Source: Undaria pinnatifida (taxonomy: Eukaryota > Sar > Phaeophyceae > Laminariales > Alariaceae). Taken from it: 64,000 nt of DNA. The position numbers and the translations under genes were made by a program. Under the pieces are notes generated by a model. The model worked only from the letters and a program-made list of their open reading frames with translations, made no database searches and was not told the origin of the DNA. Positions 5,401 to 57,852 of the stretch are shown piece after piece; within the stretch, counting starts at the first letter, position 1; each line of letters starts with the position of its first letter. Location of the stretch: contig JABAKD010000002.1 of NCBI GenBank assembly GCA_012845835.1, positions 5,764,106-5,828,105 of the forward strand, read 5' to 3'.

Positions 5401-7289
5401 CGGGACAACGGGGCGCTCCTCAATTTGACCCCTTTTGAGAGCCCCCCAAAATCCCTCCCGATAGTAACTTCAAGTAAATTTGTAAAAAAAAAGGGGTTCC
5501 AGTTGTAAAGGCGTTCTAACCCAAAACCGTCGGCATTTCGTCGTTTAATTTACTCCTTTTTTTTTTACCTACAAAAGATCATGGAGATTGTGTATCGGAT
5601 TAGCCCCTTCCATTTTTTCTTCTTAAAAAAAAAAGCCCCTCCGTACAAAAGGCCATGGAGATTGTGTATCGGATTGGCCCCTTCCTTTATTTTTTCTAGA
5701 AAAAAGCTCCCCGAGTGAGAAGCTCCGGAAAAACGGTTACACCTCTACCGTACCATGTGCCTATTTTCTGTTGACGTGAACCAATAACGCCTTTACAGCT
5801 AGCTGGAAATCCTTCCGGGCGACAAATTTACTTCAAGGTAGTATAATATGGAGAGGGATTTGGGGGCTGTAAAGAGGTTTCAAGCTCCAGAAAAATGGCT
5901 TGACCTCTCCCGTAGCATGTGCCATTTTCTGTTATAACGTGAACCATTAACGCCTTCACAGCTGGCTGGAAACCCTAAAGGAAACAAATTTGCTTCAAGT
6001 TAGTATGGGAAAGGATTTCGGGGGCTCTAAAGAGGTTTTAAGCTCCAGAAAAATGGTTACACCTCTACCGTAGCATGTGCCACTTTCTGTTGACGTGAGC
6101 GTTACAGCTGGAAACCCTGTCGGGGGACACATTTACTTCAAGGCAGAAAGGTATGGGGAGGGATCTGGGGGCTCTAAAGGGGTTATTATTACCCAAAAAT
6201 CGTCGGAAATAGCATTCTTGCTTGGCAAACATGATTTTGTTTTTACACCTACGCACTATCAGTTTACCCAAACGTTTTTTTTTTTTCCTCAGAAAGGCAG
6301 TATATCTCCTCAAGTCACCACCCTCAGAAGGAAAAAAAGAGCCAGTGCACATTTAGCGTAGCACGCGTTTTAAGACAAAACAGGAGAAGGCGATGAACAG
6401 TAATGAGCAACGACAACAACAAAACGCCGCAAAACAAGCGAAAATGAAACAAAACAAGAAACGGGAACAAAAAAAGCAGAACAAAACAAAACACAATACC
6501 AAAGAGCAAAAACCAGGCCCAACACCACAATACCGGCACAATACAAAAGAGCAAAAGCCAGGCCCAACACCACAATACCCCCCAAAGAAAAATAAAAAAA
6601 AAACACACACACAAGGCAAAAGGTTAAAAACAAAAAGTAAAACGCAACTTTCCACGAAATTCTCGATTTGGCATCTGTCTATCTTCTCTACAAAACTAAA
6701 AACAACGACACTAAGAGACAAGTCGCTCACCGCCCGCCCACCGCCTATCAGGCAGAGGGCAGCATGTCATGGCGGATGTCCTCACCCAGAGACACTCACT
6801 TGCCCATGAAATTATGCTGTGGGCTCTTCCACCAAGCTTATATACCAAAAAGCAAAAAACAAAAAACAAAAGCCTAAACCCAAAGGCAAAACTAAACAAA
6901 ATACGGCAAGACCACCTAACTATTGTAGCACCCAAAAACAAACAAAAACAAAACCTACACACATAATATAAAAATAAAAGTACAATCCGGCTGTGAGATC
7001 GAAGATTTCGTCGAAACTCATATTTGCAAGCTGTGTGTGATACTCCGATCGCGCGTATTACGGGTTGTGTGTCCTCATTAAGGATATAGGTCGGCGACTC
7101 CCCTTGCAACTACAATGTAGCTATCAGGGTCAACAGGGTGATGTTAGACAGTCTGTGCGCGGGAACTATAAAACGTGTTTCTGAGGGGGACAAAATCTGA
7201 CAGCTGTGGAAGGACATGCATCAGTATATCAAGTGTATCCTGTAATTCGTATAACCGGTGAGGAGAGGGCGGAGTGTTCGAAGGGTTGA

Positions 7290-7333
<44 letters not shown>

Positions 7334-10300
7334 AGGATTTCCCACAGCTTTCGGTCGCATAGATGTAGGGGCTTGCTATACGCGTGGTGCCAGGTCTAGG
7401 CGATGTTCGGGTGGTGGGGAAGGAGAGGGCGTTTGGAGGGGGGGGGGGGGTGAATTGGAGCTACGGGATGGATGACTAGACATATAATGAGGTGATACCA
7501 ACTGCTTTGTAGCGTAATTTACTCTTGTCATATTTGATTATAGATGGGGTGTTTGAACAAGAGGGAGCGGGGGAAAAAAGAAAAGGGGGGGGGAGGGGGG
7601 GGGGGATGAATTGGAGCTACGGCATGGATGACTAGAAAGATAATGAGGTGGTATCAGCTGCCTGGTAGTGTTTCTTACTCTGGCATAACTTGACTTTAAA
7701 AGGGGCGTTTGAACAAGCGGTATCGGGGGGGGACGGGTGGGACAACTCAATATGTGCGCGGAAACTATAAATCCTTCAAGGGGACAAATCTGACGGTCGT
7801 AGAAGGAATGCATCAGTTTATATCACCTGCCTGGTATTGTTTACTTCGTATTATTCTAGCAGATTGGATGTTAGGCGTGGTATACAATGTGATATAGCTT
7901 CGTGGTGTGTTATTGTGCATGGATCGCAAGATAAAACATTTCAATCGATAGGTGTAACCATGTAGTTACCATGACTTTACCGTGTCGATGTGGGGCTCTG
8001 AGGTCGCTAATTATAAGACAGAGACACACATTGCAAAATACAACGAGCGAGGTGATGTTGTCATACAATGTCACCACCATTGAGTACGAGGGGGAGACGT
8101 GCAAATCATCAGTATTTATTAATAGATGGTTACACCTATCGATTGACATGATTTTACCGTGCCGATGTGGGGCTCTGAGGTAGCTAATTATAAAACAGAG
8201 ATACATCTTGCAAAATACAACAAGCGAGGTGACGCGGTCATGCAATGACACCACCATTGAGCACGAGGGGGAGAAGTGCAAATCGTCAGTGTTTTGGGAA
8301 CACTTGATGCACCCTCGCTCAACTACGTTACTTCGTTAAGCATACTTATTTTGGCATAGGATGGGAGGCGATCATGCAGATGGTAAGTAGAAAATACCCC
8401 ACGCACTACCTGGTAGGCTGGTAGCGTGATCTACCGCAATTTTAACATATCTGCCTGTACTTCCTTTTCACATTATTATTTGCTAATGTACGATTATACG
8501 CCAATGATTTAATCCGTATACCAGTATATATTATAAAAAATGAAAAGTACACTTCAGCTGTGAGATAGATCGACCAAAAATGGTTTTTTGATCAAAACTC
8601 AGCTTTGCAAGCTGCGTGCAATACTTCGATCGCGCATGTTACGGGGTGTATACCGTCGTGAAGGCTACACAGGTCGGTGAGCCCCTTGCTAATGCCAGGG
8701 TCAACAGGACTAAGACGTTCTTATATTGTACTGAAAGGCAAAACAAAAACAAATTTACGGCAAGACCACCACACTCGCCCCAGAAAAAAAAATTAAAAAA
8801 TAAAAAATAATAATAAAAAGCAAAACAAACAAATTACGGCAGCAAGACCAAGTGCACCCACCGCCCACCGCCCATCGTAAAACAGCCAGCACCCCACATT
8901 GGTTGACGATGCCCTCCTTACCTGCAGACACTCGCACATGAAAATCTGTTGGGCTCTTCCACCGACTTGAAGGGCGGTTGGAACTTCCCCGAGCTGGGAC
9001 CTTAGGTATGGCACCTGTCAGGGCATCGACAGCCAGACAGAGGCACATATACAGTGGGCACCCCTTCACAAATGGAAACCCGTTTTTGTGGACAAATAAC
9101 TTAGAATTAGTATCGAGAGGGGTTTCGGGGTGCTAAACAGGTTAACGCCTTAACAACCGGAAACCCGTTTTCGTGGAAATCATTTGGAATAGATATGGGA
9201 TAATTTCGGGGCTCTCAACAGAGGTTATGATCCGGGCCGAAAAATTCTCTTCACAAGCGTTCTTCGTTCTTGTGGAAAAGCATTTTTGGAATTAGTGAGG
9301 GAGGATTTCGGGGCTCTGAGAGGTATGACCCGGGCCGAAAAATCCTCTTCACAATCGTTCTTCGTTCTTGTGGACAAGCATTTTCGGAATTAGTATGGGA
9401 GAATTTCGGGGCTCTAAATAGAGGTATGATCCAGGCCGAAAAAAAATCCTTTTCACAATCGTTCTTGTTAACTTTTTCTGCTGCGAAAAATAGTCTACAG
9501 TACGCACAAACTCAAATCAAAGTACTTGACTTTTTTTAGTCGCGGCCGATTGGCCCTCTCTCAACCCGTGCTAATCTCTTAAGACCTTTCGTGACTTGAT
9601 TACGGTACAGCGACACAACAAAAGTACAAACGCGTTCTTACCATGGCGCGAACGTGCAGCACGCGGCAGCGTGTCTTGCAGCAACCCGCACACTGGAATT
9701 CGAAAAAATGGAAAATCGTCGCCACCTAATCTAGCAGCCCGCATAGCTTGGTGTAAAGGGCCCTTAAATCGGCAGTTTTGTTGGTAATTTTTTCCCCCCT
9801 GAAGCTCCAAAAGGATATATTTTATAACCTGGCCTATGTCGACTTTTGCGGGACTTGATAGAAAAAAGCTTAGACCTTATGACAATGGAAAGCCGATAGT
9901 TTGGTCTAAAAGTTTGCAAAGCTTCTTTCGGGGGGTTATTTGCTGAAAGATTCCGGGTAACGTCGCTATGGGGAAAATATTACTGATGCGTTTTTTTTTC
10001 TCTGGCTATTTTTGGGGTCATGCGGTCCAACAGGTCAATTTGTCTATTTTTCATCAAGCCTTGATCAACACTGCCCACCAAACACGATTGACCTTCGGTC
10101 TAGAGGTAGAGACAACCCATGGCCACTCCTCTCCGTTTCGGACAAGACCACATGAGTGTAGGTGACAGCGCAAAGTAGTTTATCTTGATCCATGCTCTAG
10201 GGCGTGAGAGGTTGCTTGTGTTGTCCTGTGGTCTTCCGTCACATCCTATCAAAATTCTGTTTTTCGCCTGTTGGGAGGCGATAGAGTTTTTGTCTCAGTT

Positions 10301-11045: not shown

Positions 11046-11086
<41 letters not shown>

Positions 11087-11091
11087 CTACT

Positions 11092-11134
<43 letters not shown>

Positions 11135-11178
11135 TAGTAGTGGTAGTAGTAGTGGTAGTGGTAGTAGTAGTGGTAGTC

Positions 11179-11212
<34 letters not shown>

Positions 11213-11233
11213 GAGTAGTAGTAGTAGTAGTAG

Positions 11234-11272
<39 letters not shown>

Positions 11273-11273
11273 C

Positions 11274-11308
<35 letters not shown>

Positions 11309-12179
11309 CAGTAGTAGTAGTACCGACAAACATAGCAATCAGAACCAAACATGGTTAAAAACTACAGCAAATTGCGGCTACTAAAATGGAATATACAAAG
11401 CAGTAGGTTTTTGTGCGTATCGAGGGTTCCCGGTCGTGTGCGGCAGAGCAACATGACCGCCTTATTGGGGGAAGCGGCCTTATTCATTCCAGGCTATGAG
11501 TGCGATTCCCCAGTCACGCGAAGCGATTTTCACTGCCTTATATCGGGATAACGCCTTATTCAGACCGACTTATATCGGGATACCGCCTTATTCAGACCGC
11601 CGTATATCGGGATACCGCCTTGTTCAGACCGCCTTATATCGGGGTACCGCCTTATTCAGACCGCCTTATATCGGGATACCGCCTAATTCAGACCGCCTTA
11701 CATTGGGATACCGCCGTGTTCAGACCGCCTTATATCGGGATACCGCCTTATTCAGACCGCCTTATATCGGGGTACCGCCTTATTCAGACCGCCTTATATC
11801 GGGATATCGCACTATTGGGGGCAGCCCTACTGTATCTGCAAATGATACACTACGAAAATAACACGTACCGTTGGGATATCAACCCGGAAGTCGGACAGCT
11901 CTGCGCTTGCCAGATTGTAGTAGTAGAACGTCAGACGTCCCTGAGAAGACCTGTACTCGTGGACCACTCCGATCTGGCCAAACGAAAACATCAAAGGGCG
12001 GGTGGTGGTGGTGGTGGGTTGTTCCCACAAAAACTCGTTGCCATGCCCGCTGGTGCGGTTTTACAGGCTAGAAAAAGAAAACAACCCGACACGGAGAAAG
12101 CAAAGGGCAAAACAAGCATAAAAAATACGGACAAAAAGAAAACGCAAGAACAACAACAGACAACATCAACAACAAAAAC

Positions 12180-12236
<57 letters not shown>

Positions 12237-15200: not shown

Positions 15201-18200
15201 CTAAAGACTGAACGTCTTCGTACCTCCCTGTGGACCTTGGTACTAGCTAGCGCCAAGGGGAGTCGCCGACCAACCAATTATCCTTCTTGAGGGCATTTAC
15301 ACACCCCGTAAGGCGCACGATCTGAGTATCGTATCATACAGCTCGCAAAGGCGAGCTTGGACAAGATTATCGATGTCCCAGCGGTTAGGGCCATCGCACG
15401 CTAGGGGGTGCAGCAGATTCCAAGAATTTTCTGAGCAGATTCTAGGAATTTTCTGAGCAGATTCCAAGAACTTTCTGAGCTCCTAGCGTGAGGAGCTCAG
15501 ACATCTCACCCACCCGAAACATGACTTCGAAGGCATTATTTCGCGCAACCCGGCCAGCAGCTCCTATGCGCTGGTCCAAAAAAATGTATACCAGGTATGC
15601 TCGTAAAATATTCATACCAGCTCAACCGGTCAGAAACGTTTGGCCCAAACAGAAGTGCACCCCCCCTGCCGCGACATGAAGGACAGGACTGCCTTCCGCA
15701 GCACTAGACTAGCTTGTACTGTAGGCCGCCGCCTAGCCTAGCAATCGGCAAGGGGGATATCGTCCCCCTCCCGCTCGTGCTCGTGCGCTCTGCTGTACTC
15801 GCAGGGCTACGCGCGCGAGCCGCTCTAAACCTCGAGGGCGATCACCGCTTCCCCTTGCGCCCGGTCATAACACGCCCACCAGCCGGTACGAGCCCCCAGC
15901 ATCCAACATCTTCATTCGTCAGTTTCGAACAAAACGGACATCTTGAGGTAGTAAATACATTAAAAAAAAAGGGGTCCCGAAGAGGGCAACTACGGGAGAA
16001 ACATCTGACAAGAGCACACGATGGACCCCCAAAAAAGCGCATCCCCCCATCGTGCTCAAACAATAGATGGTTCTGGTTACCATGTACACCTCCCCCGCAA
16101 TGGAAGTAAAACTAAACAGAAAATGGCGCAAAAACGAAAACCGACAACCGCGCACCTCCGACGCAACCTTGCTTCCGGCCCGCTCTCCCGGTCCTCCGGG
16201 AACGCTGGCATCTCTTTCAACACCTGCAAGCAGCAGAGCCAGATGGGAAGCGGGATAAGAAAAAAAACAACAGAAAAAAAAAAGAGTGGTGCGCAGCCTA
16301 CAACACAATTGATCCACTCACCAGTGAGTAATGGCGCCGTTTCCGTGACGTCGATGCCCAATACCCGGCAGCTCGAGACGATCGTCTTTAGGTAAAAATA
16401 TGGTACCATGTAAAAGTTAATCATTGCTTATGACGTAACTACCGCCCATTAATACAGTTCGTGACATTATGACTGTTCATGGAACCTGGATCGACCGTGG
16501 TGCACGTGTGCATTGGATTCGTCTGCTACTCTCAATCCCTTTAGAACCCCAAACCTCTCCCTATGCTAATTCCAAGTGATTTTCCGCCAAAAACGGGTTT
16601 CCAGTTGTAAACGCGTTAAGCTGCTGCTGCTACTGCTGCTGCTGGGTTTTCTGGGGAGAAGACGTCGTTCAACATGGGGAAGGGGAGTAGGGGCATGATA
16701 CCGGGGTATATTTATCGGTTTTTAAAAAGTGCCGATGTGTACCGTGAACTCGTTCATCCGTGTGCTTTGGCGCTGGTTTAAGCTGGTTCTTAAGCTGGTG
16801 GTGTTTTTTATTGCGGGCAACCGATGGTACAGCCTTGAGTTAGTTGACTATACATCGACAGCTGTAGTTAACTTTCTTTACACAAGAACTGCCGCCCAAA
16901 CGCATCGATGCCTTTTCGATGACGTCGATGCCCACATTCGGCAGCGCGAGATACGTGCAGGACCTCTCGAACATTTCACAACGTAGTCACCCGCCCAACG
17001 AATACATTTCGAGAAGTAACTGCCGCCCAAGTCATTTGTACATCTGCCATTGCATCAATTACCGATGACGTAATTCCCGCTCAACGAACACATTTCACGA
17101 CGTAATTACCGCCCAACGTAGGTGTACCTCTTCCATGGCACAAGTTACCGTTGACGTACTTCCCTCTCAACGAAGTATTTCCCGACGTATTTACTGCCCG
17201 ACGTAGGGATGCCTCTTCTATAACTTCGACGTCCATACCAGGAAGCTCGAGGTAACCGCAGTACTTCTGCGCAGCTAATACATTTGACGACGTCTTTAAC
17301 GCCCAAGGAATACACGTCACAACGTAATTACCTCCTGGCCACTAAATCTCGCGACGTAGTTACCGCCAAGCGTACCAAGATGGAAGGCGCATGCTTGTAT
17401 CTCTTCCACGGCGTCGATGTTCACATCCAACCGTCCAACGAACACATTTCACGGCGTAATTACCGCCCAACGAATGCACACCACTACGTAATTACCGCCC
17501 AATGAACGCACAGCAAAACGTGATTACCGCCCAACGAACACACAGCACTACGTAATTACCGCCCAATGAGTGCAGATCATTACGTAATTATCGACCAACG
17601 TATAGTTACCTCTTCCATGACGTCGATGCCCATATCCGGCAGCTCGAGATACTCGCAAGACCTCTGCTGCAGCTCCAAGTTCTGGCTAGAGCTGAACCTC
17701 TCGAACACCTAAACAACCCAAAATGCAGCAGCAGCCGTGGCAAACCGTGCGGCGGAACACACAAACGAAGGCGGAATAAGCGGCGGGATTATGGACGACA
17801 AACGTGGCGACATAACATAGCCATGCGGGAGAATAACAAAGCAAAGAGCTAAGAAAGTAAAGCAGAAAGAAGTGAAGCGATGGGGCGGTGGCACTAGGGG
17901 GCTACGCGGGCCCCTCAAACCGCACGGTGCACCGTAACACACAACAGCAGCGGGATGAGCGGCGGAATTAGGGTCTACAGTATGACAGCTGCGAAATAAC
18001 GGTACCACGCGGGGAGGAAACAGAGCCAAGAGCTAAACAGTAAGCACTGGAACAAAGGAGCGGTGGTATTCGGGGCCTACGCAGCGGAACAACGGAGCTA
18101 AGCGGCCCAATGAAGGGCTGATCGGCCACAGAGAGTAGCGCGGCGAAACAACAGAGCTAACCAGCGGAGTAACGGCGCCAAGCACCGAAGTAACGGAGCG

Positions 18201-21200: not shown

Positions 21201-24200
21201 CCTCTACCACCACCACTACGATCACCTACCCCTTGCCATCATCACCGCCGCCACCGCCACCACCATAGCCAACAACAACCCCCGCCCCCCCCTCCCCCGC
21301 CTCCCCCCTTCCCCCACAAGCTAGGCAGTTACAGTCGTCCGTGAACTTCTCAGCTAGGATGGCAATCCTAAGCACCTCCCGACCCCCCCCCCCCCCTTCC
21401 TTCCCCTCCCCCCCGACCCGTTCCACTACTATTCCCCCTTACTCCCCGCTTCTCCCCCCCCTTGACCTCCCCCCCACCCCTCACACTATCCCCCCCCCCC
21501 CCCCCCCCCCCGCGGCGTTCCCTTGCCCCGTCTGCCAGACTCACCAGTTAAGGTCGTCCGTGAACTTCTCAGCTAGGATAGCGATCTTGAGCACCATTTC
21601 CTCCCGAATGCCGGCCCCCGACGCAGCCAGGTACGTCGCCAGTTCTTCGACAATGTCAGTCCCGTTAGATTCGTCCGCCATAACGAAAAGAAGGTCTAGC
21701 GCCCGCCTTCGGATGCTGATATCCGCATCCTGTGAACATATAATGAAAAAAAAAACGGCAACAAAAGGGAACAAGAATAAACCGCCTACCATACATATGA
21801 TGGAGAAGTATAGTGGAAACTACAGTAATAAATTTATAAAATAGATGTGATGTTAGATCTAGCCCAAAATTCCGCACCTAAAAAGTAAAATACCAACGCT
21901 TACCATTATAGTGGACAAAAAATGGGACCCCTCCTGATAAAAACTCGCCCATATAGTATATTCCAAGTACCGACAACGCAGCTTGCAAAGATAAGTATTG
22001 ACCTGAAATTCGTCGAACTCACGGCTGACGTCCTTGCAATATTTTTTTATAAAATCGTACTCAAGAGAGTTGTGAAAAAACCATAACTGTAGGAAAAGAC
22101 AGCCGTGACAACGCTATTCGTAAAAAAAAAAAAAAAATGCGTTTGCCTGGCACGGCAGAGTTGAACATCAGACACCCGTGAAAGAAACAAAATATTCGAA
22201 TTAAAAGAGTCATAAAAAATACGGTCGAAAAATATCGTCGCAAAAAAAGAAGTCAAACCCGGAAATATTCCGTAAAAAATCGAAAGAAAAGAGTCGTCGA
22301 AAAGACGGTCGAAAAATATCGTCGCAAAAAAAGAAGTCAAACCCGGAAATATTTCGTAAAAAAAATTGGTGCGTCAAGAGAGATGCGCAACAAAGACAGC
22401 CGAATAGCAGACATTCGTGTGTGATAGTGTTGGTCGGAGGCATGTGTGGCTACGGGGAGAGGGGGAAGGGGGGTGGGAGAGGGCATCGACGGGAGCGTTA
22501 GATTGGTCTGCCACAACACAAAGAAGATGTAGCGCCCTCCTTTGGATGCTGATATCCGCATCCTACCAGGTACTAAACAAAACGAAGAGAGTCGTGCGTG
22601 TGGCCGTGTAATGGTTGGAGGCGCATATAGCCAGAGGGGGAGGAGCGGGAGGGGCGAGGGGGGGGCGGCAGGGACAGTGTCCACCAGGACTATAACTACA
22701 TTCCCAACCGTATACACGCGGAACCAGCAATCGCGAGACGACGACACCCCCCTGCAGCGCATATAAGAGACGAGGGGTGATACCGACGAGTGGCAACAAC
22801 TGCAAGCACACCTAGATCGAAAAAACGGTTATGTACCTTACCCGATGCCTATGTTTAGCTTAGGGAATAGAACAAGAGCGCAGCACACAACAGTCCCCTC
22901 TCCCCCCCCTGTCCCCCCACCTCCACCCCCCCCCCCCCGTCTGTACACCCACGCCCGTATACCTTGAGGGACATTAGCACCGTGGCCTGGTGCTTCTTAG
23001 CCGTCTCGTTGCCTTCCAGCCTGGCCAGGCGCGACATCACCTCCAGACCCAAGTAGCGGATGTTCGGTTCCTGAGAGAGCGCGTGGAACGCAGTACAAGC
23101 AGTACAAGTGGCGTCATATAGGCACCGCGAACAACCGATTGAGGCCGGCAATGTCTATCGAAATAAACAGACCAAAATACGTTGTGTCCATCGATTGACT
23201 GTATCACCCGCTCAACAATATACCCCCATCCCCCCCCCCCCCCCCCCTTCCACCGCCTCCCCTCCCCTCCACCCTTCCTATTGGGCCTCTTCCCCCCCAC
23301 CCCCCACCCTAATGGACCTCTCCCCTCCCCCCCCCCCCCCTCTTGACCTTCCCCACCCGCCACTCTAACCCCTCCTCCTCGGGAATGCGATTGTGATGCG
23401 CTTACCTTGACAGCAATGAACCGACCCAGCAGCGTCATCGCCTTCGATCGAAGCTCCTCATTGCTGTCTTGCCCCTGAAAGACGGCACCAACAGCAGCAA
23501 ACCACAACAGAAAAATAATCGTGATGCAGATCGGGAAGGAATAGCGCTGGTGGCTAACGGGCAAGGCACGCAGACGACACCAACAGACGCGCGCTACGCT
23601 AGAGGTGTAGCGCTTTGGTAGCGAAAACACACATATTTTTCTGGGTGGTTGTGCTCCTTGGGCCATTCCCAACCCCTAACCTTATCCTAGTCTAACTCCA
23701 AGTGTTTTGTTCCCATGTCGGGAGTGCGGTGCTAAAGGGGTTCATTAAGCCACAGCTCTTGGAAGGTCATTCTCGTTTTGCAGCATGATAATTTCGTACA
23801 CGAGCCGTTCCACGGCACGTAGCCCCCCCCAACTCCTCTTCAACGAAATCGCCGGTTTAAAAAACCAGCTCCCGGTCGTATCTCCTGAAACATACGGTGT
23901 CCCTCGACACCCCGGCGTCATCGATCGATAGACCTTCGCACACACAAGCAACTACATGGATACTTTTCTTTCAGTAGTGCTCTTCTTTGTGTCGAGCAGC
24001 CATGAAACGTTCGTCACACAAAATCGCTGGTTTGGGGCGGGGGGGGGGCTATCGTAGAATCACTCACACCTAGGCCATCGGGTTGCACTTTTCATTTCTA
24101 TACAAAGGTCAGTTTTTTGGGGGGTGGGTGGGTGGGCGGGACCAAGCCCACTATTGGGGGGACACTTTTTAAGGCCGCTTATTTCGTGAGCTAAGGAGGC

Positions 24201-27200: not shown

Positions 27201-30200
27201 ACCATTACATTTGTAAGCATTTCTCCACGTTTCTTTTCACTATTAGAACAAGTTTGCTTAAAAACGAAAAACAAAACACGAATTCTCTGACAAAAAGCCA
27301 TACGATTCCTCACATTTGGAAACTCTGATACGTCATTTGCTCAAAAAAAAAAACTGATCACCTCTTTTTTGAAACACACTTTGAAAAAAAAAAAAAAAAA
27401 CAGGACTCCTGGCACAACCAACTCTCACGTGGAAAACGTCAAAGCAATTCACATTCAAAGCCCGGATTCCTGACAAAACATCACGATTTTTCGCAAAAAT
27501 AAAATAAAAAAAAAGTCGCGTTCTCTTTTTATCGTCACGATTCCTCACATTTCACACGACGCGTATGAAAATACGTGGAAGTGTGGTGAGCTAAAGCTTT
27601 ATTTTTCCCCATCCGCCGGAGGATGAAAAAAAAAAAAAAAAAAAAAAAAAAATCGGGGGGGGGGGGGGGGGGGGGGGGTGAAATCGCGCTCCTTGGACAA
27701 ACAAAACAAGTCTAACCTCGGTCTTGGTGATGATCTTGTCGAGCGCCTCATCCAGCTTCTCCCGCTGACTCTCGTCCGTGGGCGGGGGAAACAGCTGCAG
27801 AAATTTGAGCAGCTTTACATGCATCCAGGGTGTGGGCGTGCCGTAGTACAGGTAGTCCGAAGCGCAAGCCTTGTGGATAACCTAAAAAAAATAAACGAAA
27901 CAAAAATCCGCGGGGGGAATTATAGAGGGGTGAGGAAAGGGGCGGAGAATGGGGTGAGGTGAGGCGGCGTGGAGTGGCGTGGGGTAGGTCAGGGTGGGGT
28001 GGGGTGGGGTGGGGTGGGGTGGGGTGGGGTGGGGTGGGGTGGGGTGGGGTGGGGTGGGGTGGGGTGGGGTGGGGTGGGGTGGGGTGGGGTGGGGTGGGGT
28101 GGGGTGGGATGGGGTGGGATGGGGTGGGGTGGGTTGAGGGAGAGACAAGTGGGAAGGGGTGCGTGGGGGAGGGAGTGGAGGAACAAAAATACACCCGAGA
28201 CGGGACGCCGCCACAAACGGTCGATTCGTGTTGCGGGATATACGGTACCTACGCTGCTGCCAAATAGCTAGCTCACCAGCCTTGTGAGCAGGTGGATGAC
28301 GTGCGGGACTAGCCCCTCGTAGTTGTCGGGACTGCGAAGGGCGAGGCCGATCAAGAGAGACATCACAGAGGTCACGACTCCGAGGTTCTTGTTCTCAAGC
28401 AGACGCGCCTGGCGCCATGGACATGGGAGGGGGGGTGGGGGAGGGGGGGGTCGGTGATGGCACGTCGGAAATACACACGTTGGAAACTGCTGAGAAGCCT
28501 ACGAACCGCACAGAAACAATAGCAACAGCACCAGCAACAACACGAGCACCAACACCAACACAACCATCACAAAAAAAAAACGAGCACCTCCAACAACATA
28601 ACCATACCAACACTAACGCCGCCAGCACCACGACTGCCGACACCGCCTACCAAATCACCACAACCACCACCACAACCACCAACATCACCCTATCGAAACC
28701 AAAACCACCCCCACCAAACCCAACACTACCATCACCAACACGCCCACAACGGCAACTTCCAATACCAACACCAACACCAACACACGCACCACCACCGCCA
28801 CCCTAAACACCACCAGGAAAACCAACATCAACCACGACGACTACGACGACCACCACCAACAGCACCAACACTAACACCACTCAAACATGCAACACGAACA
28901 CCACCACAACAACCACCACAACAACCAACACAAACACCACCACATAACCCGACACGACCACCACCAAAACCAACACAATGAACGCCACCACCGTCACCAA
29001 CAAATCCACTACGGCCACCCTCACGACACCACCCCAACCACCATCACCGCCAACATCACAAACATCAACAACACCAGCACCCTCCCCCCCTCCTCATCCC
29101 CCCCGCTCCCCTCACCCTCCGTATCCACCATCCCCCGTCCAAACCCACCACCTCCATCGACCACGCATCTCACCATCTTCTCCGCCCATTCACTGTGCAC
29201 GAGATTTCCAGGGTGCTCCCTGAAGAACCTAAGGAAACACAAAGCCGCTTTCTTTCTCACAGCCGGGTCCGTTCCCTTCGTCACTAACAGCCGCTCCACC
29301 TCCTACATTATGCAGGCGGTAGGCCGAACGGGAAGGGGGGGGGGGGGGGGGGGTATTCACCATCATGCATGGCCGTAGTCGTATGACCATAGATCCTGGC
29401 ACCCCTACAATGCCGGGACGGAGCACGTCGGGTTTTCACCGACCAGGCAGGCATTGCTTGCACCGTGCGCGGAGCGCCTTATGGTGTTCGGCGAGTCGCA
29501 CGAAGGCTGAGCTGCGTCCAGGTAAGGACCACATGTGAGGCGGACCTCGGCGCTTTGTACTCGTGTTCTCTTGCGTATGGGTGGCTGCTTCGAACTACTT
29601 CATTGTCCCGGTGTGGCCGGTTCAAGAACGGGAACAGAGCCTAACCATGGGGAGAGTGAGGTGGGATCAGAGATCTTCATCAAGACGCGTGCTACGATGG
29701 AGGGAAAAAAAAATACCAATAAAAACCGACGTTTACAGCATCGACCCCCCGAGGCAACGCGGGCTGCTTGGATGATCGGTGATACGTCCGAGCTGCAACA
29801 ATACAACAAGACGCACGAGACAAAGACCCCGTTCGTACCGCTTGCTGCGCACTGACGGGAGACGGTGGACGGACACCATCGCACTTGTAATGATTCTTTG
29901 GTTGCTATAACCGCGCTCCTAAAGGGTTCATTACGACGCGCGCTACGATGGAGGTAGCACTTAATGGCCAAAGCACTCTGCGAGCGACGGGGCTCCTTGG
30001 CCCAAAGTCGTCGGAAATTGGCCATTGTTCAGTGTGCAACGCTAGTTTTTGCGATGCCTAGCCCATGGATCTGTTCATCGGGTTAGCGCTAGGGTTACTT
30101 ACTTGTAAAAAATGTATATATATACTCCTGGAGATCCGCGTAAAAAAAGCGTAAGCTCCATACACTTTCGTTTGTGTACCAGTTTTTGTCCATCTGCAAA

Positions 30201-33200
30201 ACGCAGACTTGGTGTTAACCTCGCGCCTTCGATTAAGCCAACACCGTGGACTTGGTTACTCAAAATAAGCTTTTGGCTGAGGCAGGGTAAGCTATGAGGG
30301 TGCGGTAGGGGCGGTGCCCCCACACGGTACGGGGGGTACCCTCATACCTTACCCTGCCTCAAGCCACTCCCACGAGTGGCCCTTACCCTGCCTCAAGCCA
30401 CTCCCACGAGCGGCGCTGCGCCCCACTGACAACAATACTTTTGGACAAAACTTTTCGCCTAGCATAGATTACCATCCAATTGCTGATCCATCAATATCGA
30501 AAAATATAAGAGCACAAACGCTTAAGACCGGACAGGAAGAGGGGGGTCACTCGCGCGAGCCCAAAAAAAAGTGACCCTGTCTACTGCAGCCTTGGAGCCG
30601 GAAAAAAAAGGTGCATATCTACCGTAGCGTGCCTGTTAACCCCCTTAAGAGCCCCCATATCCCCCCTATACTAACTTCAAGTAAAAATGTCTCCAAAAAA
30701 GGGTTTCCAGTTGTAAAGGCGTTAACCCCCCTTGGAACTTCAAACAAAAAAAAAAAGATGGAAAAAAAAACTGCCGATTACAGCATCGGCCGCACGAAGC
30801 AACCCGACCTGCTGCTGCTGGTGTAGCAGCCGATGTGTTCGAACCGCACCATAAGAAAGAAACCGTGAGGTACGCGTGAGGCATGACGATGTGATACTCG
30901 GATTGCCTTTTTTTTTTTGCTTTTTTTTTTAATCCTCCGGCGGATGGGGAAAAATAAAGCTTAAGCTCACCACACTTCCACGTATTTCCATACGCGTCGT
31001 GTGCCGATTCAACTCAGTTGCTTTCGCAGCCCAACGCTAGCTGGCGCACCCTTCGGATCCCACTGTAGGGACAGCGTGAGCTGTCTTTATCAGTGGTCCT
31101 CGTTACAACGATTGCCTTGAGATCCTTCTTGATGGTTGATTACATTGCGCTCGTCGCTTTTGGGTCTGTATGAATCGGTCCCCAAACGGTTTAACCCCGT
31201 TTACCACTGCGCACACGTTTCGGGGAAAATATTTGCAATTAGTGTGGAACACCTGTAGGCAGTAGCAAAAGGTCAACAACATACAATCGTTCTCATAGTC
31301 ACTAAACAGACGCCCCACTTCCCACAATACGGAGGCGGTGGCCACGAGGGGATAGGGGGGGGGGGGGGACAAACCACAAACCGAAGCTAACCGAGTCGAA
31401 CCGAACCGAAATGAGAAGCGGAGGAAGGCAAGAAACTTGCCGCTATTTCCGTGTTGTCCCCATCCACGGTAGATATCCATAAAACCAATTTCAGCCCTTC
31501 CCCGCCCCCATTCCTCCTGGCTCCCAATTTTCCGCCGCCCGGGCATCTCTCGGGGTGCGATGGTCTAGGGTATGACAGACTACGGTTATGCACGACCATG
31601 ATTACACCGACACTCCCTGGTCCTCGCAATCGCGTTTCGCCTGCGTGGTGTTTGCTCACTGCAACCATGATGGTGAGTGACATGATGCTGAGATATGGCT
31701 AAATTTTTCAAAACAAAAGGGGAGGGGGGTGCACACTTACCGGCAGTAACGCCTCGCACAGATCGCTCCCTCCAAGGTTCGCGACCGTTGCCAAGGCAAG
31801 CGTCTGCACATTCACAGCCAATCAGCCGTCGTGGGGAGGCACCGACAGCCAATCAGCGACAGACCAGAGACATCGCCAGCCAATCAGCGAGAGACCAGAG
31901 GTGCCATCAGCCAATCAAAGGTGGGGGAGAGGTGAACGTTAGGGTCAGAGCGACTGTTGAGGTCGTTGCGGATAGTGTTCAACCCAACAGACATGCCAAC
32001 CCAACAGACATGCCAACCCAATACGCTAAATCGAACAGACGGGCAATACCGACGGACAGACACACCGGCAACAACAGACCGACTGATAAGAACGACCGCT
32101 CGACCAACCTGCGTCAGGCTGGAGTGGCGGTGGAGATTGTCGTGGATGGTATCCATGGTATAAATAACAACCAAGCCAACAAACAAAAAAAAACAATAAT
32201 GGGGTGTTTGCGATTAGGACTTTTCTGTTTTGTCGGGAGAGGGGGACAATCCCCCCCGTAAAACATCAAGACCTGATTGGGTGTTGCTCAATTTATTGCA
32301 AAATTTGCTGTCCAGTTGGGCTAGAGCTGCCCCGACGGGTGAAATTCGTTGGCTGTGAGCAGCTGGGCTAGAGCTATCCTGACCAACCAAACCCAAGAAA
32401 TATGTTGAGGACTGCGGGTTTAGAAAAGAAGGCCATTTTGGACGTTTTAGCTAGTTTTTCGTGGGTTGGGTTTGCCTTGGGTTAAAACATTCGTCAGTTT
32501 CAATACAATTATCATATGTTTTCCAACCGAACCAAACTTGATATCCCACAAAAACCCAGACGGAAAAGATGCAAACACCGAAAAGCCGACAGTCAATCCG
32601 TCCCCGGTTGGCACCTCCCTGGCATCTCCGGGGGTACCCACTTCGACACCCCCTTGGTGCGTTTCTTGCGGAACGGTCCAGCTTTTCTTTGGTTTCTTGC
32701 TCGGCCTTTGTTGTTTTCAGGGCTTTTCACGGGTCGGGTCAAAGTCCGACCGACGGCACAACCATAAGCAAACACAAACCGTCGGTCATCTGTCGATCCG
32801 TCCGGTCGACGGCACAACCAACCCGACCCGGGCGGGCGCGGCTGCTGAGGCTGTTGCGGGTGGAGTGTAACTACCAAGAACCGACAGAAAATAATGCAAA
32901 ACATAAGAACAGACCAACCAGCAGAACAACCCAACCCAGTCATCAAAACAGCCATCCGACCAACCTGAGCCGGGCTGGAGTGGCTGTTGAGGTCGTTGCG
33001 GATGGAGTTGATGACCAAGGTCATCATCTTGTCTCCCGACCGCAGCAGCAGGCTCACTGCGATGTACCCCACGTTCTTCTCGGAGTACCTACAAAAAAAA
33101 AACATGCCACGAAAGTCATTACAAAACAATACCAGGTACACTATTAACTAGTACAGGGCACCTAAACAACACGCAGAAACATTTAGTACGCAGCTTGCAA

Positions 33201-44460: not shown

Positions 44461-44494
<34 letters not shown>

Positions 44495-47400
44495 ACCGTA
44501 TACCAGGTAATACATACCTGGTCAGCCGTTCGTTCGTGTTTTGTTCTGTGTACATGGCGACATCCACGCCCAACAACACCCACCACGCGCACAGGCTCTG
44601 TGTATTGCAAAATGGTGATTGTTATCCCTGCGTACTCACATCTCGTACTCGTCGGGAGGATCTTCTTCCTGTACCTCGTAGAGTCGATATAAGTGCCACG
44701 TGCAAGCTAGGTGTTACACCAGGTATGCGAAGTACACGCTCCGCTGTCACATGTTACTAATATGATCGTACCTGGTATGACACGAGACAGACCATGCTGT
44801 TGCTGTTGCTGTTCTTGTACCCCTCGTTTTCACTATCCAGCTTTACGCTCGGCGGTCTACGCAGCATGTCGTGGACACAAGGGCGTACGTACCCTTCTCC
44901 CGTTCTACAGGCCTTGCCTGTTGTCGCGCAGAGGGCTACTGTCATGTGGCATTCGCGCTGCTTGTCGAGTTTCATCCATGTGTACCAACTCGCGCTCGAG
45001 CTTTCGGCGACGTCCGGAGACAGCAGTAGTGAACCAAGTGTTGTATCCCAAGGGCGAATATTTGTATGCTCTGCAATACCCGGGCATAAAATGTGGTTGT
45101 TTGGGTCATACTATTGTGGGTGCCCTAGGCACTTTGTACGTGATACCCTACTAGACAAACCCTTGAAAATATTGTTACATCACCGCTCGAAAGCAGAGGA
45201 CAGGCAACGACGGTAGCAGCCGCTTCCGAAACACTTTGAGGACAGACACTCAGCATACTCGCCGCTGTACTATACGAACAAGCGAGTCGAGCGGAACCAA
45301 GACGGGACGATTCGAGATCATGGGAGACAAGCTCAGCCAGGACGAGATCAGTCCAGTCGAAATATGTTTAGGTCAGTCGATACGAGATCAACCGAAATGA
45401 GATCCGTCGAGACAAGGCGAGATCAGTCGAGTCTAGTTCCGTCGAGATGAGTCGAACCGAGACCGGTCGAGATCAATCGAGTCGAGTTGAAACCAAATGG
45501 TTCGGTCGAGATGGGTCGATATGATACCGGGCAGTCGAGAGTCGAGATCAGTCGAGTCAAACTCAGTCGAATGGAACTCAGTAGACCCAAACTCAGTCGA
45601 GTCGAACTCCGTCGAGGCGAGATCTTTCGAAACGAGGTCATTCGAAACGGGATTTGTCGAGACGAGATCAGTCGAGTCGATAGTAGCTGTATCAAGGCAA
45701 GTCGAGCCGAGGGCGACCAATCGTGAGGATGGGTCGAAATAATATATGAGTTTCGACAAAATCTTCGATCTCACAGCTGGAGTGTATTTTAATTTTTATA
45801 ATATACCTAGTACCTGATGTATTATTAGTCGAGAGGATATCGGTCGGTCAAGCCCAAATCCACGAATCGAGCTGAGTCGTGTGTCGAGAGTACCGCTGCA
45901 GTGGGGGGCTGCCCCAATAGTGCCGGTGTGTGCCAGCCCAATATACCGGCATTATCTAGGGCACCGGCACTATTGAGAACAAGTTTACTATAAAGGGCTC
46001 CTTTTGGGCCGAGCGATTTGACCGGCACTACAGAAAGCGGTGACACTATTCAGCCAGCATTATTGAGAGCCCTCGCTGTAGTCGAGTCGAGACGAGACGC
46101 GCAGAGATGAATCGAGAATAGTCGACACGAGTCTAATTACGAGACTTGATAACTTGAGTGTTGAGACCAGATGAGTGTCGAGACGAGATGAGCCGAGTCG
46201 AGTCGAGTAGAGACATCGCTGGTCGAACGCAGGGAAAAGCCAACGCTGACGGTGGTTGGTGATTGCCCCCCCTCTCACATGCTTGAGCGGTGCGCGCTGG
46301 CTGAGGCTCGCGCGGTCTATGGCAGATTTTCTGCTCTTTTTTGCTCGTAGTGAAACATGTTTGAGCGGCTCGCGGTCTCTACCTTTTGTACGAGTGCAGT
46401 AAGCGCCCTCTGATACGACCGGGGTCCTCGCCCAGGCTATATTATTTTTTTTGAGAAAGGGTAGGGTGTGCTCCACTGCAACGTCGTTATACCCGCTCCC
46501 CTGTTCCTTACGTACCTGTAAATACCAGGCAGTTTTATGGTTTTGCTATTTCTTACGAGAGGGCCGGTAGTGTCGACGAGTCGAGTCCAAACAAGTCCAG
46601 ACGATGACGAGACGAGTCGAGATGAGTTCGGTGCAGGTTATGGTATGAATCGAGTAGGAGTCGAGACGAGGCGAAGTTAACCGAACCGAGACGGGATGGA
46701 ACGGGGCTGGCGGAGTAGCGTGGAATCGAGACGAAACGATATAAGTCTACGGGGTAAAGGGATTACATACGGGTTTTTCAGGTATATGAAGCCTCTGCTG
46801 TAGGAAAGGTTCCCAATGAACGTGGCAGCGTCTCCCCGCCGCCACGGGCACTTTTTCTTACGCGCGATGTGAGGCAAAGAGTGAGCCTTCCTTCACTTTG
46901 CGGTGAACGGCGTGAGAGCTCAAGGCGATCTCTGACATCGGCGTACCGGTTTGGTCGTGCACCGAATATGCCGGGATGACCGGAATATCTTCGGATGGGT
47001 TGTACCGTCCGTTGGATCTTCCGATTGTACATGTGTGGAACGATCGTTCCACGTGCCTTTCCCAAGACCTGTCCTCCACAAGTACTTGTGTTTCTTGCCA
47101 CGGTAGCCGCCACAAAAAAACTTCCGGATTCGCGCGCCTCTCCGACCGAGCACGTCCACGCGTTCATCGGTCCGCCATATACGAGAGCGTTCGAGCGCGT
47201 GAGCGGACGGACGAACTACCACCGTCGCCGCTGTCCGTCCCTGCTTCCCGCCGGCGATGTCTAGACGCGTCTAATCTCATCCCGACTGGAGTCGTCTCAT
47301 TTAATTTCGATATCGTCGGTCCGCCCCTCCCTAATTAAAAAAAATATGAATTCCACCCCATTTATTCCCTAGAATCTAGATTAGCTCCTCGTGGAAAACA

Positions 47401-49975: not shown

Positions 49976-49979
49976 CCTG

Positions 49980-50695: not shown

Positions 50696-50699
50696 GGTG

Positions 50700-52700: not shown

Positions 52701-52702
52701 TA

Positions 52703-53560: not shown

Positions 53561-55449
53561 TATCAAACTGCATGTTTCGGCCGGGGGAGGGTGTGGCGGC
53601 TACCAACTATAACAGAGTCATAGTACTACAGTTAAGTCGTGTAGTAATGGCCCTTCTGTCAAACTGCATGTTTCGGCCCGGGGGGGGCGTGTGGCGGCTG
53701 CTAACAGTAACAGAGTAATAGTACTATAGTATGTCGTATAGTAATGATCCTGCTGGCACTGCTGCTGCAAGTAGCATACCGCGTACCACTGCTGTGGTTG
53801 CGTCAACACACCCAAGGCGGTGTGCATTGTTTGTGTGTAGCTCGACAGACAATGTTGTGCGCTTGCTTGTTTGTGCATTCTGATGTATCGTCGTCGTTGC
53901 GGCAGAAGATTATTGGTGAAGAGTATGCAGCTCGTCTACACAAACGTATCGCATAACGCTGTACGACATTTTTGCCTGTTACTAGAAGAGTGGACGTATT
54001 GAGATCCGTGTGAAATCTCCATCATGTAACTGCATTAGGCCAGGCTGGCCGCCGGCACTCCCACACAACGCACATGCATGGCAAGTACTAACATACAGGT
54101 ACTTACGTATACATGCTGATGGTCGACGAGCTCGAGCGGGGCCGGCTACTGCTCACGACGGTATAGCAGCAGCGGATGGGCTGCCTCGAAAGCGACCTAC
54201 CGCAGACACGTTCTGGCAGGAGCTGACCTCTGGCACGAAAATGCAAACAGCAAAACGTAAATTTGGTCAGAGGTTTGATGTTTTGTGCCTGCCCTTCCAA
54301 CTCGAAAAACCGTTTTCAATTACGGCACAGTATTACTGTGCAACTGCAGTCGGAACTCCCCACAAAGGATGATCATGCGCCCATATTCCATTGCGGGCAG
54401 GAACGATTGTTACACGGCCACTCGTACACCGCGCGGGGAGAGTCCTGCTATCAAGAGCAGGGCGAGGTCGAGCAGATTGTGGAAGGCGTCGATACCGTAA
54501 CTACTGCAGAGACAGGGGAGGGGGTGCAGGGGAGCATTTCGCAAATTGCAGCCATGATGCCCGGAACAAACCCTATGTGAACAGCCATAGCACATACTCG
54601 TGCAGCATAGACCGGCAGACGCAGCACATACAGGCAGACTCAGCACAGACTGTATGTAACACTTCTGTAGTCTGGTGTCTTGCGTGCGAGCACTATTTGA
54701 GGCCTCGGTCGCTCCTCTCCCTCGGCTTTAAAATCCTCATTGTTATTTGGAATATGTGTCCCACATACAGTACGAGTATACCCTGATACGTCGTACTATA
54801 TCATACGAACAACCATTGGTGTTTGTTGATGATGCTCTATGACTTAGCCGTAAATCCTTTCGTGATTGGCTGCTTGTTTTGGGTGGTCCATGGGCTATGG
54901 CATAGAAAAGAAAGGGCTATACCATAGCCCATAGGTGGTGGAAAAAACGTTGGCGGTGTGATGATGGTGCTGTTGTGCTGCTGGTGGTGCTGTTGATGTT
55001 GGTGTTGTCGCTTCCTGGCATTTTTCTCCGTTGTGCATTTAGACCTCGAGAAAGAAAATCGCCCTAGGTGACGATTGCAGCCTCGGCCACTCGAGTAGCG
55101 CTCCGACCGCATTGTCAATCCCAATCCTCTTATCACTGAAAGCCATCAGGAGAAAAATCACTCATCTTTCAAGTATTCACCCCCCCTCCTTTCATCCCTC
55201 CGTCTGTGATGGGGCTGTTTTAAGCAGAAGACCAGCTGTATTTCCAAATTCAGGTCGTGAGGAGGTCAAAACAAAGGGGGGACTTATCGTATGAGGATCT
55301 ACACCGTTTTCGGCCTGAAAACGCCTCCCAAGTAAAACGTAACCTGTCCCCGTACCAGGCATCTGATCGCTGAGGTTTTACTAGCCCTCAAGGACAATGC
55401 CGTAACACCCCCGCCCCTCCCTCCGTCCCTCCACCCCCACCGGCTTCAG
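53561..55449. other. Intergenic or unresolved exons, no gene assigned
   Basis: A two-copy repeat (AAACTGCATGTTTCGGCC.GGGG..G.GTGTGGCGGCT) lies at 53562-53640 and 53657-53735. Splice-like segments occur at 54390-54470 (minus, YGIDAFHNLLDLALLLIAG after a CTGCAG acceptor) and 55359-55401 (plus, HLIAEVLLALKDNA between AG and GT). The second could be an upstream exon of the VHL-like gene, but the phase does not join directly. Confidence 0.3.
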
Positions 55450-57582
55450 GCACTGTTCCCGATTTCGTCATTTCACCGGAGGAAAAGGAAGAACCGCCAA
55501 AGAGGCGTTATTGTCCTGCGGAAACCCCAGTTTCGCGCGCTAAAGCTAACAACCCGCACCCCGGACGAGGACCGACCTGTAGAATTGTGGACGTGATAAT
55601 CGAGAACAGCTCGGGGATGAAGATCGGAATATATTGGGTGGATACGGAAGGCCAGGAGGTGAACGACATGCCACTATACTGTTTATGTCACTGTGAAAAG
55701 TCCAAAGTTCAAATGCAGGTGTGAAGAGTAGACCTGATGTGCAAGCGCTCCTATTCAGTTTCTTTTCCTTCTTACGATAACTAATTGCCTCGCACGGTAG
55801 CATCAACTACATATGACACCCAGGTCAACCTTGCGTACGTGACCTGGCCAACACTTCGACCTCACGCATGTGACCTCAGCCAACACATTGCGTGGTAGAA
55901 TGTCGTGCAAAACTGGTTTCCTCTTCCATACCTAAACAAACGACGTCTAACCCATAGACTAGTTCGACAGCATACCCAGCACTCTGCATACATTTACTTG
56001 GCTATGTAGTGAACATCTACCTTTGTCGGGTGGATATCTTGAGGATCCTACTCTCTAACATACTGTAAATGTACTATAAATAGTGCTACGTATGCTACTG
56101 CTACTTCTGCTGCTGTTGCTGCTTTGCAGCTGCTACGGCTACTGCTACTACTGTTGCTGCAGCTACTTCTACTGTTGCTGAGTAAGCACATGATCCGTAC
56201 ATATGCTTGCAGTTAGATCGCACAAGAACGGCATCAAGTTGGCGTGGAGTGATCCTGCATGTGCGTTGACATGCCCTTTTATTGTTAACCGCGTCAGAGG
56301 TAGCGTGGTATGAGGTGGCAGGGTCGGCGGCCAAACCTCCAGGTACATGCAGCCCTTTAACATGCTATAGGGGGCTCCCATAGTGCTGGTTAAATAGGGC
56401 CGCTGCTATCTAAAGTGCCGGTTGAATACTGCCACTGTTTTCTATAGTACCAGTTGCATAGGGTCGCTGTCGTCTATAGGACCGGTTGAATAGTCCAACT
56501 GCTTTTATAGTGCGGGTTGCATAGTGCCACTTCCCTCTATATGATGCCGATTGAATTGCGTTAATTCTCTCTAGTGCCATTCAAATGGTGCCACTGCTCT
56601 CTATAGTGCCGGTTGAATAGTGTCATTGCTCTCTATAGTGACGGTTGAATAGTCTCACTGCTCTCCAAAGTACCGGTTGAATAGTGCCACTTTTTTATAG
56701 TGCGGGTTGAATAGTGCCACTGCTCTCTATAGTGCTGGTTGAATAGTGCCACCGCTCTCTATAGTCGCGGTTGGATAGTGTCACTTTTCGCTGTAATGCC
56801 GGTTGAATAGTGCCACTGCTCTCTATAGTGCCGGTCAATTATCTTGGCATGACTGGAACCCTAAAATATCTCTTATGGGAGCCCTATTTCCAATCAAAGA
56901 TATCGGATGACGGCACTGTTGACTTTTGACGGACAGTTGTCAAGGATCGACCACTCTATACTAAAACTAGTATATTAATTTTAACGAGGCCTCGACGGGA
57001 CAAAACTAGACCGTCAACCATCATCTTTGAATAGTGCACTATGCCCTGAATAGTGCCGGTGTATTAGGCTGACTCTTACCGGCACTAGCGGGAGCCCCTC
57101 ATTGTACCGTTAACCCATTTAGCACCGCACTCCCGACATAAGGGACAAAACACTTGGAGTTAGAGTAGGATCATTTTAGGGGTCGGAAATGGGTGCACCC
57201 GCTTCGCCCATGTCCAGCACGCCATTGGGCTGGGCGTCTTTTTTTAACGCCCCCCCCCCCCCTCCCCTCACACGCGTGCAAAAACAAAAAATCGAATATA
57301 GGTGTGGCAATTCTCCGTAAACGCCGGACATGCCGCAATCATCACGTCCTGTCGAGAGCATTACTGGAGAGCGCGACCATTCTCTCCCGATGGCAGGCGT
57401 CGCCTTCTCTTTGAGGGTCTGGTTCCGCAGCTATCCATGCCCACCCGCCTGCTACCGTCTTCGGAGGACACCTCGGAGGATTTGCATATGTGGAAGGTGC
57501 TGGCGTGCGAGGGGTTTCCACTTCCGACGGCGTTCGATTTGGCGTCGTCGCTTGGCGGAGCAGGAGGCTTACAGCTGTCACG
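55450..57582 (+). CDS. Partial gene model, possible VHL beta-domain-like protein (two exons seen)
   Basis: Exons 55450..55718 and 57302..57582 join in phase 0 (CAG|GTGTGA donor; ATATAG acceptor). Exon A ends IIENSSGMKIGIYWVDTEGQ followed by EVNDMPLYC. Exon B begins VWQFSVNAGHAAIITSCREH followed by YWRARPFSPDGRRRLLFEGL. Across the joint the pattern (N-x-S..., W-x-D-x-(E/D)G, then G-x-x-x-I-x-S-x-x-x-H-x-W-x-x-R) resembles the VHL beta domain, where the same spacing precedes the hydroxyproline-binding strands. No elongin-binding BC box is visible. Upstream and downstream exons are not resolved: exon A starts mid-codon and exon B ends in phase 2. The second half of exon B has a decayed copy at about 57775-57850 that keeps the same reading frame, which supports coding. 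The VHL call is by eye and could be wrong; coding on this strand is more likely than the family name. Confidence 0.4.
56365..57105. mobile_element. TIR element with an internal 32-bp minisatellite
   Basis: Left GGGGGCTCCCATAGTGCTGGT is inverted at the right end (GGGGCTCCCGCTAGTGCCGGT). The interior is about 14 units of CTCTCTATAGTGCCGGTTGAATAGTGCCACTG-type sequence. TA follows the right end. No coding capacity. It lies between the two VHL-like exons. Confidence 0.7.
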
Positions 57583-57769
57583 GTAAGCACAGGCAAAACA
57601 GCTCCAGCGATCAACAAAAAAAAGAAAGAAAAGAGGTTTCAGAATTTGTATACCAGAGGTGCTCTTCTTGTACGTGCCGTATCAGAGAAAGGGAGAGGGG
57701 CGGGGGGGGCTTCGACTCATCACCTACCTAAGGTTGGAGGGTTCTCGTATCCCATGGTCTATCAAGGTA

Positions 57770-57852
57770 ATTTAGGCAATGATGCTGCCGGGGTTTCCAC
57801 TGTCGCAGGCGTTCGATCTCGCGTCATCCCTTCGTGTGGCGGGACACTTGAA
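57770..57852 (+). repeat. Decayed copy of the 3' part of the VHL-like exon
   Basis: Reads MLPGFPLSQAFDLASSLRVAG against ACEGFPLPTAFDLASSLGGAG in the exon at 57302-57582. It lies about 200 bp downstream of that exon, in the expected intron. Confidence 0.7.

What the first reader, a model, noticed from the sequence alone, without database searches (positions are those of the whole stretch)
6727..57852. Exon echoes: decayed partial copies of exons, often spanning a splice junction, in adjacent introns
Seen directly: exons 4, 12, 16 and 22 of AP-2 alpha and the VHL-like exon each have 1-5 partial copies nearby. Copies often extend across the exon-intron boundary and keep a donor or acceptor. Reading frame is often intact but diverged. 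This is not exon shuffling of whole exons; tandem duplication seems to start at exon edges and then decay, at five places in one window. It may reflect a genome-wide process and could supply cryptic splice sites or alternative exons.
Basis: partly seen in the sequence, partly recalled or inferred. Interest (0 to 1): 0.78.

Follow-up and report, generated by a model that had tools for sequence, protein, structure and literature searches.

The report
Tandem-copied exon edges in kelp introns
In this kelp genome about one sampled exon in five has a decayed partial copy of its edge lying in the neighbouring intron, left by ordinary local DNA duplication that spares the working exon, much like the so-called mirages known from amphioxus genes.

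Summary
The "VHL-like" locus is duplicated too, but neither that name nor its exon status is supported. The genome is taken to be Undaria pinnatifida (wakame kelp). In a sample of 110 exons (window, ten CCT-chaperonin genes, one adaptin gene) 23 have local copies and 21 have junction-spanning ones. All 44 copies are direct repeats. All 39 junction-spanning copies obey one rule: 5'-edge copies lie upstream, 3'-edge copies downstream. Matched non-exonic segments show no such rule (231 right, 220 wrong of 2,200). Copies decay like neutral DNA: source-copy dN/dS 0.53; 17 of 44 carry a frameshift or stop. Intron bases within 50 bp of exons are covered by local copies about half as often as those 100-800 bp away, so duplication does not start preferentially at exon edges. 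Best reading: pervasive small tandem duplication of genic DNA, filtered by selection that keeps each exon intact. This matches the "mirages" of amphioxus genes; limited searches found no report for a brown alga. It is not exon shuffling, and nothing indicates alternative exons.

The parts
32965..33088 (-).
32817..32878 (-). copy of x4 3' edge with donor, 141 bp downstream
   Evidence: 79% over 62 columns
32056..32149 (-). copy of x4 3' edge, donor GT and adjoining intron, about 855 bp downstream
31948..31979 (-). copy of an x4 segment near the 3' edge, 1,030 bp downstream (alignment stays inside the exon)
   Evidence: 88% over 32 columns
29174..29302 (-).
31288..31368 (-). copy of x6 5' edge with intron flank, about 2 kb upstream
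21545..21729 (-).
22496..22582 (-). copy of x11 5' edge with AG, 830 bp upstream
   Evidence: exonic copies only local in a whole-genome search
21279..21376 (-). copy of x11 3' end, about 215 bp downstream; runs into G-rich intron unmasked, stops at the exon end when simple repeats are masked
17610..17708 (-).
17154..17276 (-). copy of x15 3' edge and intron, about 398 bp downstream
16899..16967 (-). copy of x15 3' edge, 698 bp downstream; reads GC where the source has donor GT
16341..16378 (-). copy of an x15 segment near the 3' edge, 1,271 bp downstream
   Evidence: 92% over 38 columns
8922..9014 (-).
6734..6833 (-). copy of x19 3' edge and intron, about 2.1 kb downstream
57790..57849 (+). 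copy of that frame, 279 bp downstream

Best explanation
Small tandem duplications (copy spacings here 111 bp to 2.1 kb, some grown into multi-copy arrays) occur along all genic DNA of this kelp. When one breakpoint falls inside an exon and the other in the adjacent intron, the exon survives intact on one side and a partial copy with its splice site is left in the intron. For a 3' edge the working copy is the upstream one; for a 5' edge it is the downstream one. Selection removes duplications that break or double an exon, so survivors are partial and point one way. The spare copy then decays neutrally. Shown here: locality, direct orientation, polarity, neutral-like decay, no excess of copies next to exons. 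Inferred: that selection made the polarity, and that duplication arises by end-joining-type repair rather than homologous recombination.
For: 44 of 44 local copies of 110 exons are direct; 39 of 39 junction-spanning copies obey the polarity rule, at 22 distinct edges. Matched non-exonic segments of the same regions are 231 right, 220 wrong of 2,200; real exons have 0 of 110 wrong (Fisher p = 1.8e-5). Local direct copies cover 17.2% of non-exonic bases, inverted ones 3.2%; exon bases 8.4% and 0. Exonic columns are 81.8% identical, intronic columns of the same copies 69.5%, and exon divergence is the lower in 25 of 27 pairs with 15 or more columns on both sides, as expected when only the exon is conserved. 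dN/dS 0.53 (bootstrap 0.41-0.63); the neutral expectation with one constrained partner is about 0.5. Against other genes' regions the 110 exons gave 6 hits, from 4 exons. A 511-Mb search with x11 found itself, its two neighbours and one match to flanking intron. Eight of 13 young two-copy arrays have junctions within 4 bp of exact abutment, so no long homology is needed.
Against: The one-edge right-polarity class is about twice the background rate (21/110 versus 231/2,200; p = 0.011); after removing conservation in silico a non-significant excess of 15-27% remains (the expected 12.8 uses my estimate of 11% duplication growth). Copies lie up to 2.1 kb away, so many no longer abut and need later insertions, deletions or loss of the units between. 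The sample is two conserved protein families plus one window, not random genes; 4 of 12 regions (C22b, C34b, C57, C38) show no copies. Some exon edges are uncertain (C13b_6 start has stops in frame). A whole-genome search with x4 missed even its own local copies, so absence of distant copies is tested only in part.
Confidence: 0.86

Rival explanations
1. Exon-intron boundaries are mutational hot spots (for instance through splicing- or transcription-coupled breaks), so duplication really starts at exon edges.
For: Right-polarity, junction-spanning copies at 21 of 110 exons versus 231 of 2,200 matched non-exonic segments.
Against: Any direct copy: 23 of 110 versus 531 of 2,200. Intron coverage falls towards exons (10.8% at 0-50 bp, 18-22% at 100-800 bp, 13.6% beyond); a uniform rate predicts about half at the edge, because only one of the two copies can sit there. 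Added neutral change in exons lowers 21 to 16.3 or 14.75.
Confidence: 0.08
2. The copies are alternative or mutually exclusive exons, or remnants of ones that were whole.
For: Some copies keep frame and a splice site (GT in 19 of 29, AG in 5 of 10).
Against: None of 44 alignments covers both exon edges; 17 of 44 carry a frameshift or stop and dN/dS is 0.53. GT retention does not differ significantly from the 14 of 29 expected at intron identity (p = 0.09).
Confidence: 0.03
3. Mobile elements captured exon pieces, or spliced RNA was copied back into the gene.
For: Dispersed repeats are common in these introns (at least 43 places for 7439-7729).
Against: Copies include intron sequence, keep orientation and order, and are local; x11 has no distant exonic copies.
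Confidence: 0.02
4. Assembly artefact (misjoined haplotypes or read errors).
For: Not tested with reads.
Against: Alignments are 59-92% identical with a consistent exon/intron difference and recur in 8 of 12 regions, which sequencing error would not give.
Confidence: 0.01

Closest known systems
[quoted passage not shown] PMC3087553, passages incl. part of the abstract seen)
   Same: Tandem, partial, span a splice junction, occur at both 5' and 3' boundaries, one to several copies, many keep AG/GT, copies lie in the intron beside the intact exon.
   Different: Here in a brown alga, found at 21 of 110 sampled exons, mostly diverged, spacings up to 2.1 kb; length polymorphism, somatic instability and RNA effects unknown here.
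Internal gene duplication (Gao and Lynch 2009; not held; seen only as cited in PMC4974935)
   Same: Duplication of gene segments as a common event.
   Different: As cited and by title it concerns duplicated segments and intron creation; here existing introns are lengthened.
[quoted passage not shown] PMC4974935 and PMC3443670, passages seen)
   Same: Tandem duplication near splice signals; the potato case also crosses an intron-exon boundary.
   Different: There the duplicate creates a new intron; here the copy sits inside an intron that already existed.
Tandem exon duplication and mutually exclusive exons (PMC6071210, passages incl. part of the abstract seen)
   Same: Tandem genomic duplication of exon plus adjoining intron.
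   Different: Whole exons kept by selection there; partial, decaying copies here.

Membership tests
Mirage (exon-intron boundary tandem duplication) | Same-strand local duplicate spanning an exon-intron boundary | tested here: met
   39 of 44 copies span one boundary, all direct
Mirage (exon-intron boundary tandem duplication) | Both 5' and 3' boundaries affected | tested here: met
   8 five-prime and 14 three-prime edges
Mirage (exon-intron boundary tandem duplication) | Repeat clusters with several units | tested here: met
   C29a_5 has 7 copies, C34a_6 has 4, C29b_9, x4 and x15 have 3 each
Mirage (exon-intron boundary tandem duplication) | Repeat unit 10-160 bp, abutting | tested here: inconclusive
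   Some abut (C18_5 spacing 123, C29b_9 spacing 111); others lie 0.3-2.1 kb away
Mirage (exon-intron boundary tandem duplication) | Length polymorphism, no disturbance of splicing | not testable with these tools
   No reads or RNA available
Tandem exon duplication / mutually exclusive exons | Whole exon copied with both splice sites | tested here: not met
   0 of 44 alignments span both edges
Tandem exon duplication / mutually exclusive exons | Copy under coding constraint | tested here: not met
   dN/dS 0.53, 17 of 44 with frameshift or stop
[quoted passage not shown]
   39 of 44 copies carry adjoining intron sequence and lie within introns that keep their own splice sites
Introners or other mobile elements | Dispersed copies of the same sequence | tested here: not met
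   6 hits from 4 of 110 exons to other gene regions; x11 exonic copies local only in 511 Mb

The most novel reading that the evidence does not exclude
Kelp introns lengthen largely by continual small tandem duplication, and exon echoes are its datable fossils: because the parent exon is conserved, each echo has a known source, direction and one-sided clock, so the rate and age profile of intron growth can be read gene by gene.
Probability: 0.4. Interest if true: 0.6.

Novelty: new member of a known kind. Interest (0 to 1): 0.42.

Why it matters
For amphioxus mirages the generating mechanism was called unclear (PMC3087553, passage seen). Here the same structure appears at 21 of 110 sampled exons of an unrelated lineage, and its frequency, orientation and decay fit background duplication plus selection, with no boundary-specific process needed. 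That gives a testable general rule (5' echoes upstream, 3' echoes downstream) and offers a clock for intron growth. Such copies could also mislead gene annotation and read mapping (inference).

Tried and rejected
Rfam scan of the window: nothing. VHL by recalled-protein tblastn and by Pfam: no support. The idea that copies end exactly at exon edges (suggested by x11) was dropped: with larger flanks most copies run into intron (39 of 44), and the intronic parts diverge faster. The idea of exon-edge hot spots was tested and not supported. A first dN/dS (0.51) used a wrong frame for x4 and was replaced. A Fisher table had a slip of one and was replaced. Rows dropped: 4 of 82 CCT matches (three weak lone matches and one outside the fetched stretch). 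x21's match was dropped as simple repeat. Whole-genome search with x4 returned only itself: it missed even the local copies, so absence of distant copies rests on x11 and the swap control (where the window as target was cut to its first 20 kb). The non-exonic background of the window includes some intergenic DNA and may include unrecognised exons.

Full report
WHAT THE WINDOW IS. The window is G000:C26:5764106-5828105 of a 511,146,479-bp assembly in 68 contigs. Contig C34 is 16,510,065 bp long, exactly the scaffold N50 printed for the Undaria pinnatifida assembly (511.28 Mb, GC 50.14%; PMC7058681, passages seen). The organism is therefore taken to be Undaria pinnatifida, a laminarialean brown alga (lineage). 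On the minus strand, about 35.9 to 2.1 kb, lies AP-2 alpha: its spliced N-terminal part scores Adaptin_N E 1.5e-103 and AP-2 alpha chains E 2e-149, against 2e-69 for AP-1 gamma. The last exons (x17-x22) rest on weak matches to a recalled ear domain. A V-ATPase subunit F gene lies on the plus strand (PF01990, E 2.2e-15). The "VHL-like" name has no Pfam support.

CHECK OF THE OBSERVATION. With 60-bp flanks, exons x4, x6, x11, x15 and x19 of AP-2 alpha and the open frame at 57488-57581 have local direct copies. x11 is copied on both sides: its 5' part lies 830 bp upstream and its 3' part about 215 bp downstream. A search of the whole assembly with x11 finds itself, these two copies and one match to the flanking intron. 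The same search with x4 finds only itself, so it is not sensitive enough for older copies.

A LARGER SAMPLE. The Pfam family PF00118 marks exons of CCT chaperonin genes one by one (82 matches; 78 used). Ten gene regions were fetched, and one adaptin gene (six exons). With the 26 window exons this gives 110 exons in 12 regions. With 500-bp flanks and simple repeats masked, 23 of 110 exons have local copies (44 alignments within 3 kb, E up to 1e-3): 17 CCT exons in seven genes and six in the window; regions C22b, C34b, C57 and C38 have none. All 44 are direct. Of these, 10 cross a 5' exon edge and all lie upstream; 29 cross a 3' edge and all lie downstream; five stay inside the exon, all downstream; none covers both edges. 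Counted by edge this is 22 of 22, in 21 exons. One CCT exon, C29a_5, has seven copies of its 3' edge downstream of it.

CONTROLS. In the same regions 2,200 pseudo-exons of matched length outside the known exons were scored alike: 531 have a direct local copy, 231 a one-edge copy of the right polarity and 220 of the wrong polarity. Real exons have 21 and 0 of 110. The reversed-sequence control gave 0 hits; exons against other genes' regions gave 6 hits from 4 exons (the window as target was cut to its first 20 kb). In earlier scans with 60-bp flanks, exons with local copies were 5 of 26 (window) and 17 of 78 (CCT), against 164 of 600 (AP-2 alpha span) or 195 of 600 (wider window) and 510 of 2,000 random segments. 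The window's background includes some intergenic DNA.

IS THE EXON EDGE SPECIAL? Coverage of bases by local direct copies is 8.4% in exons, 10.8% at 0-50 bp from exons, 12.7% at 50-100 bp, 18-22% at 100-800 bp, 13.6% beyond 800 bp, 17.2% overall outside exons; inverted copies cover 3.2% of non-exonic and no exon bases. With a uniform duplication rate the edge should show about half the deeper coverage, since only one copy of each pair can stay at the edge; that is roughly what is seen. The one-edge right-polarity class is about twofold above background (p = 0.011). Because exons are conserved, their copies stay recognisable longer: adding 15% or 20% random change to exons in silico lowers 21 to 16.3 or 14.75 of 110, against about 12.8 expected from the background rate with my estimate of 11% growth (Poisson p 0.22 and 0.31). 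A modest edge preference cannot be excluded but is not shown.

DECAY. Aligned exonic columns are 1,769 of 2,163 identical (81.8%), intronic columns of the same copies 2,354 of 3,388 (69.5%). Source-copy dN/dS is 0.53, bootstrap 0.41 to 0.63; with one constrained and one free partner about 0.5 is expected. Frameshift gaps occur in 13, stops in 7, either in 17 of 44. Donor GT is kept in 19 of 29 and acceptor AG in 5 of 10; 14 of 29 GT would be expected from intron identity, p = 0.09.

MECHANISM. Shown: local, direct, partial, one polarity, neutral-like decay. Inferred: small tandem duplications arise throughout, and selection keeps those that leave one intact exon. A unit running from inside the exon into the downstream intron leaves the first copy working and the second as echo; the mirror case puts the echo upstream. 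Among 13 young two-copy arrays, eight have junctions within 4 bp of exact abutment, one has 11 bp of overlap and four have larger gaps (7, 23, 36 and 81 bp), so long homology is not required; end-joining-type repair is a reasonable but unproven source. Multi-copy arrays suggest later slippage or unequal exchange.

COMPARISON. [quoted passage not shown] Anatomy agrees; polymorphism and RNA behaviour could not be tested here. Intron gain by tandem duplication (PMC4974935, PMC3443670, passages) and mutually exclusive exons (PMC6071210, passages) fail defining features. Searches of the paper library touching brown-algal or kelp exon and intron duplication (only the top 10-15 of 57 to 952 papers were listed, and I read listings only, apart from passages of PMC7058681) showed no report of this in brown algae; the library lacks most subscription journals.

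VERDICT. Limits: two conserved families plus one window, approximate exon edges in a few cases, no RNA, no second species.

Noticed in passing
window 7439-7729: Looks like a two-copy tandem repeat but is a dispersed element with at least 43 matches across the assembly.
   Followed up: partly
window 6963-7107, 8528-8689, 15254-15382, 33188-33259, 45744-45804: Stretches that match one another in both orientations inside and outside AP-2 alpha: an interspersed repeat family.
   Followed up: no
window 25469-26090: Three head-to-tail 207-bp units about 98% alike inside an AP-2 alpha intron: recent tandem duplication.
   Followed up: no
window 11535-11810 and 39685-39833: The same 32-bp minisatellite unit forms arrays at two places 28 kb apart.
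   Followed up: no
window 62298-64000: Long tandem repeat with a period near 535 bp, about 94% alike, running to the window end.
   Followed up: no
window 20680-20690 (AP-2 alpha x12 donor): The exon appears to end CAG|GCGAGG, a GC-AG intron, among otherwise mostly GT-AG introns.
   Followed up: no
G000:C56:13738358-13738450 and 13738565-13738639: Two overlapping Adaptin_N matches about 200 bp apart (model 42-72 and 43-67), perhaps another echo visible at protein level; DNA not fetched.
   Followed up: no
L044-L045, exon C29a_5 of a CCT gene: Seven downstream copies of one exon 3' edge, spaced about 83 bp; all seven alignments run past the exon end.
   Followed up: partly
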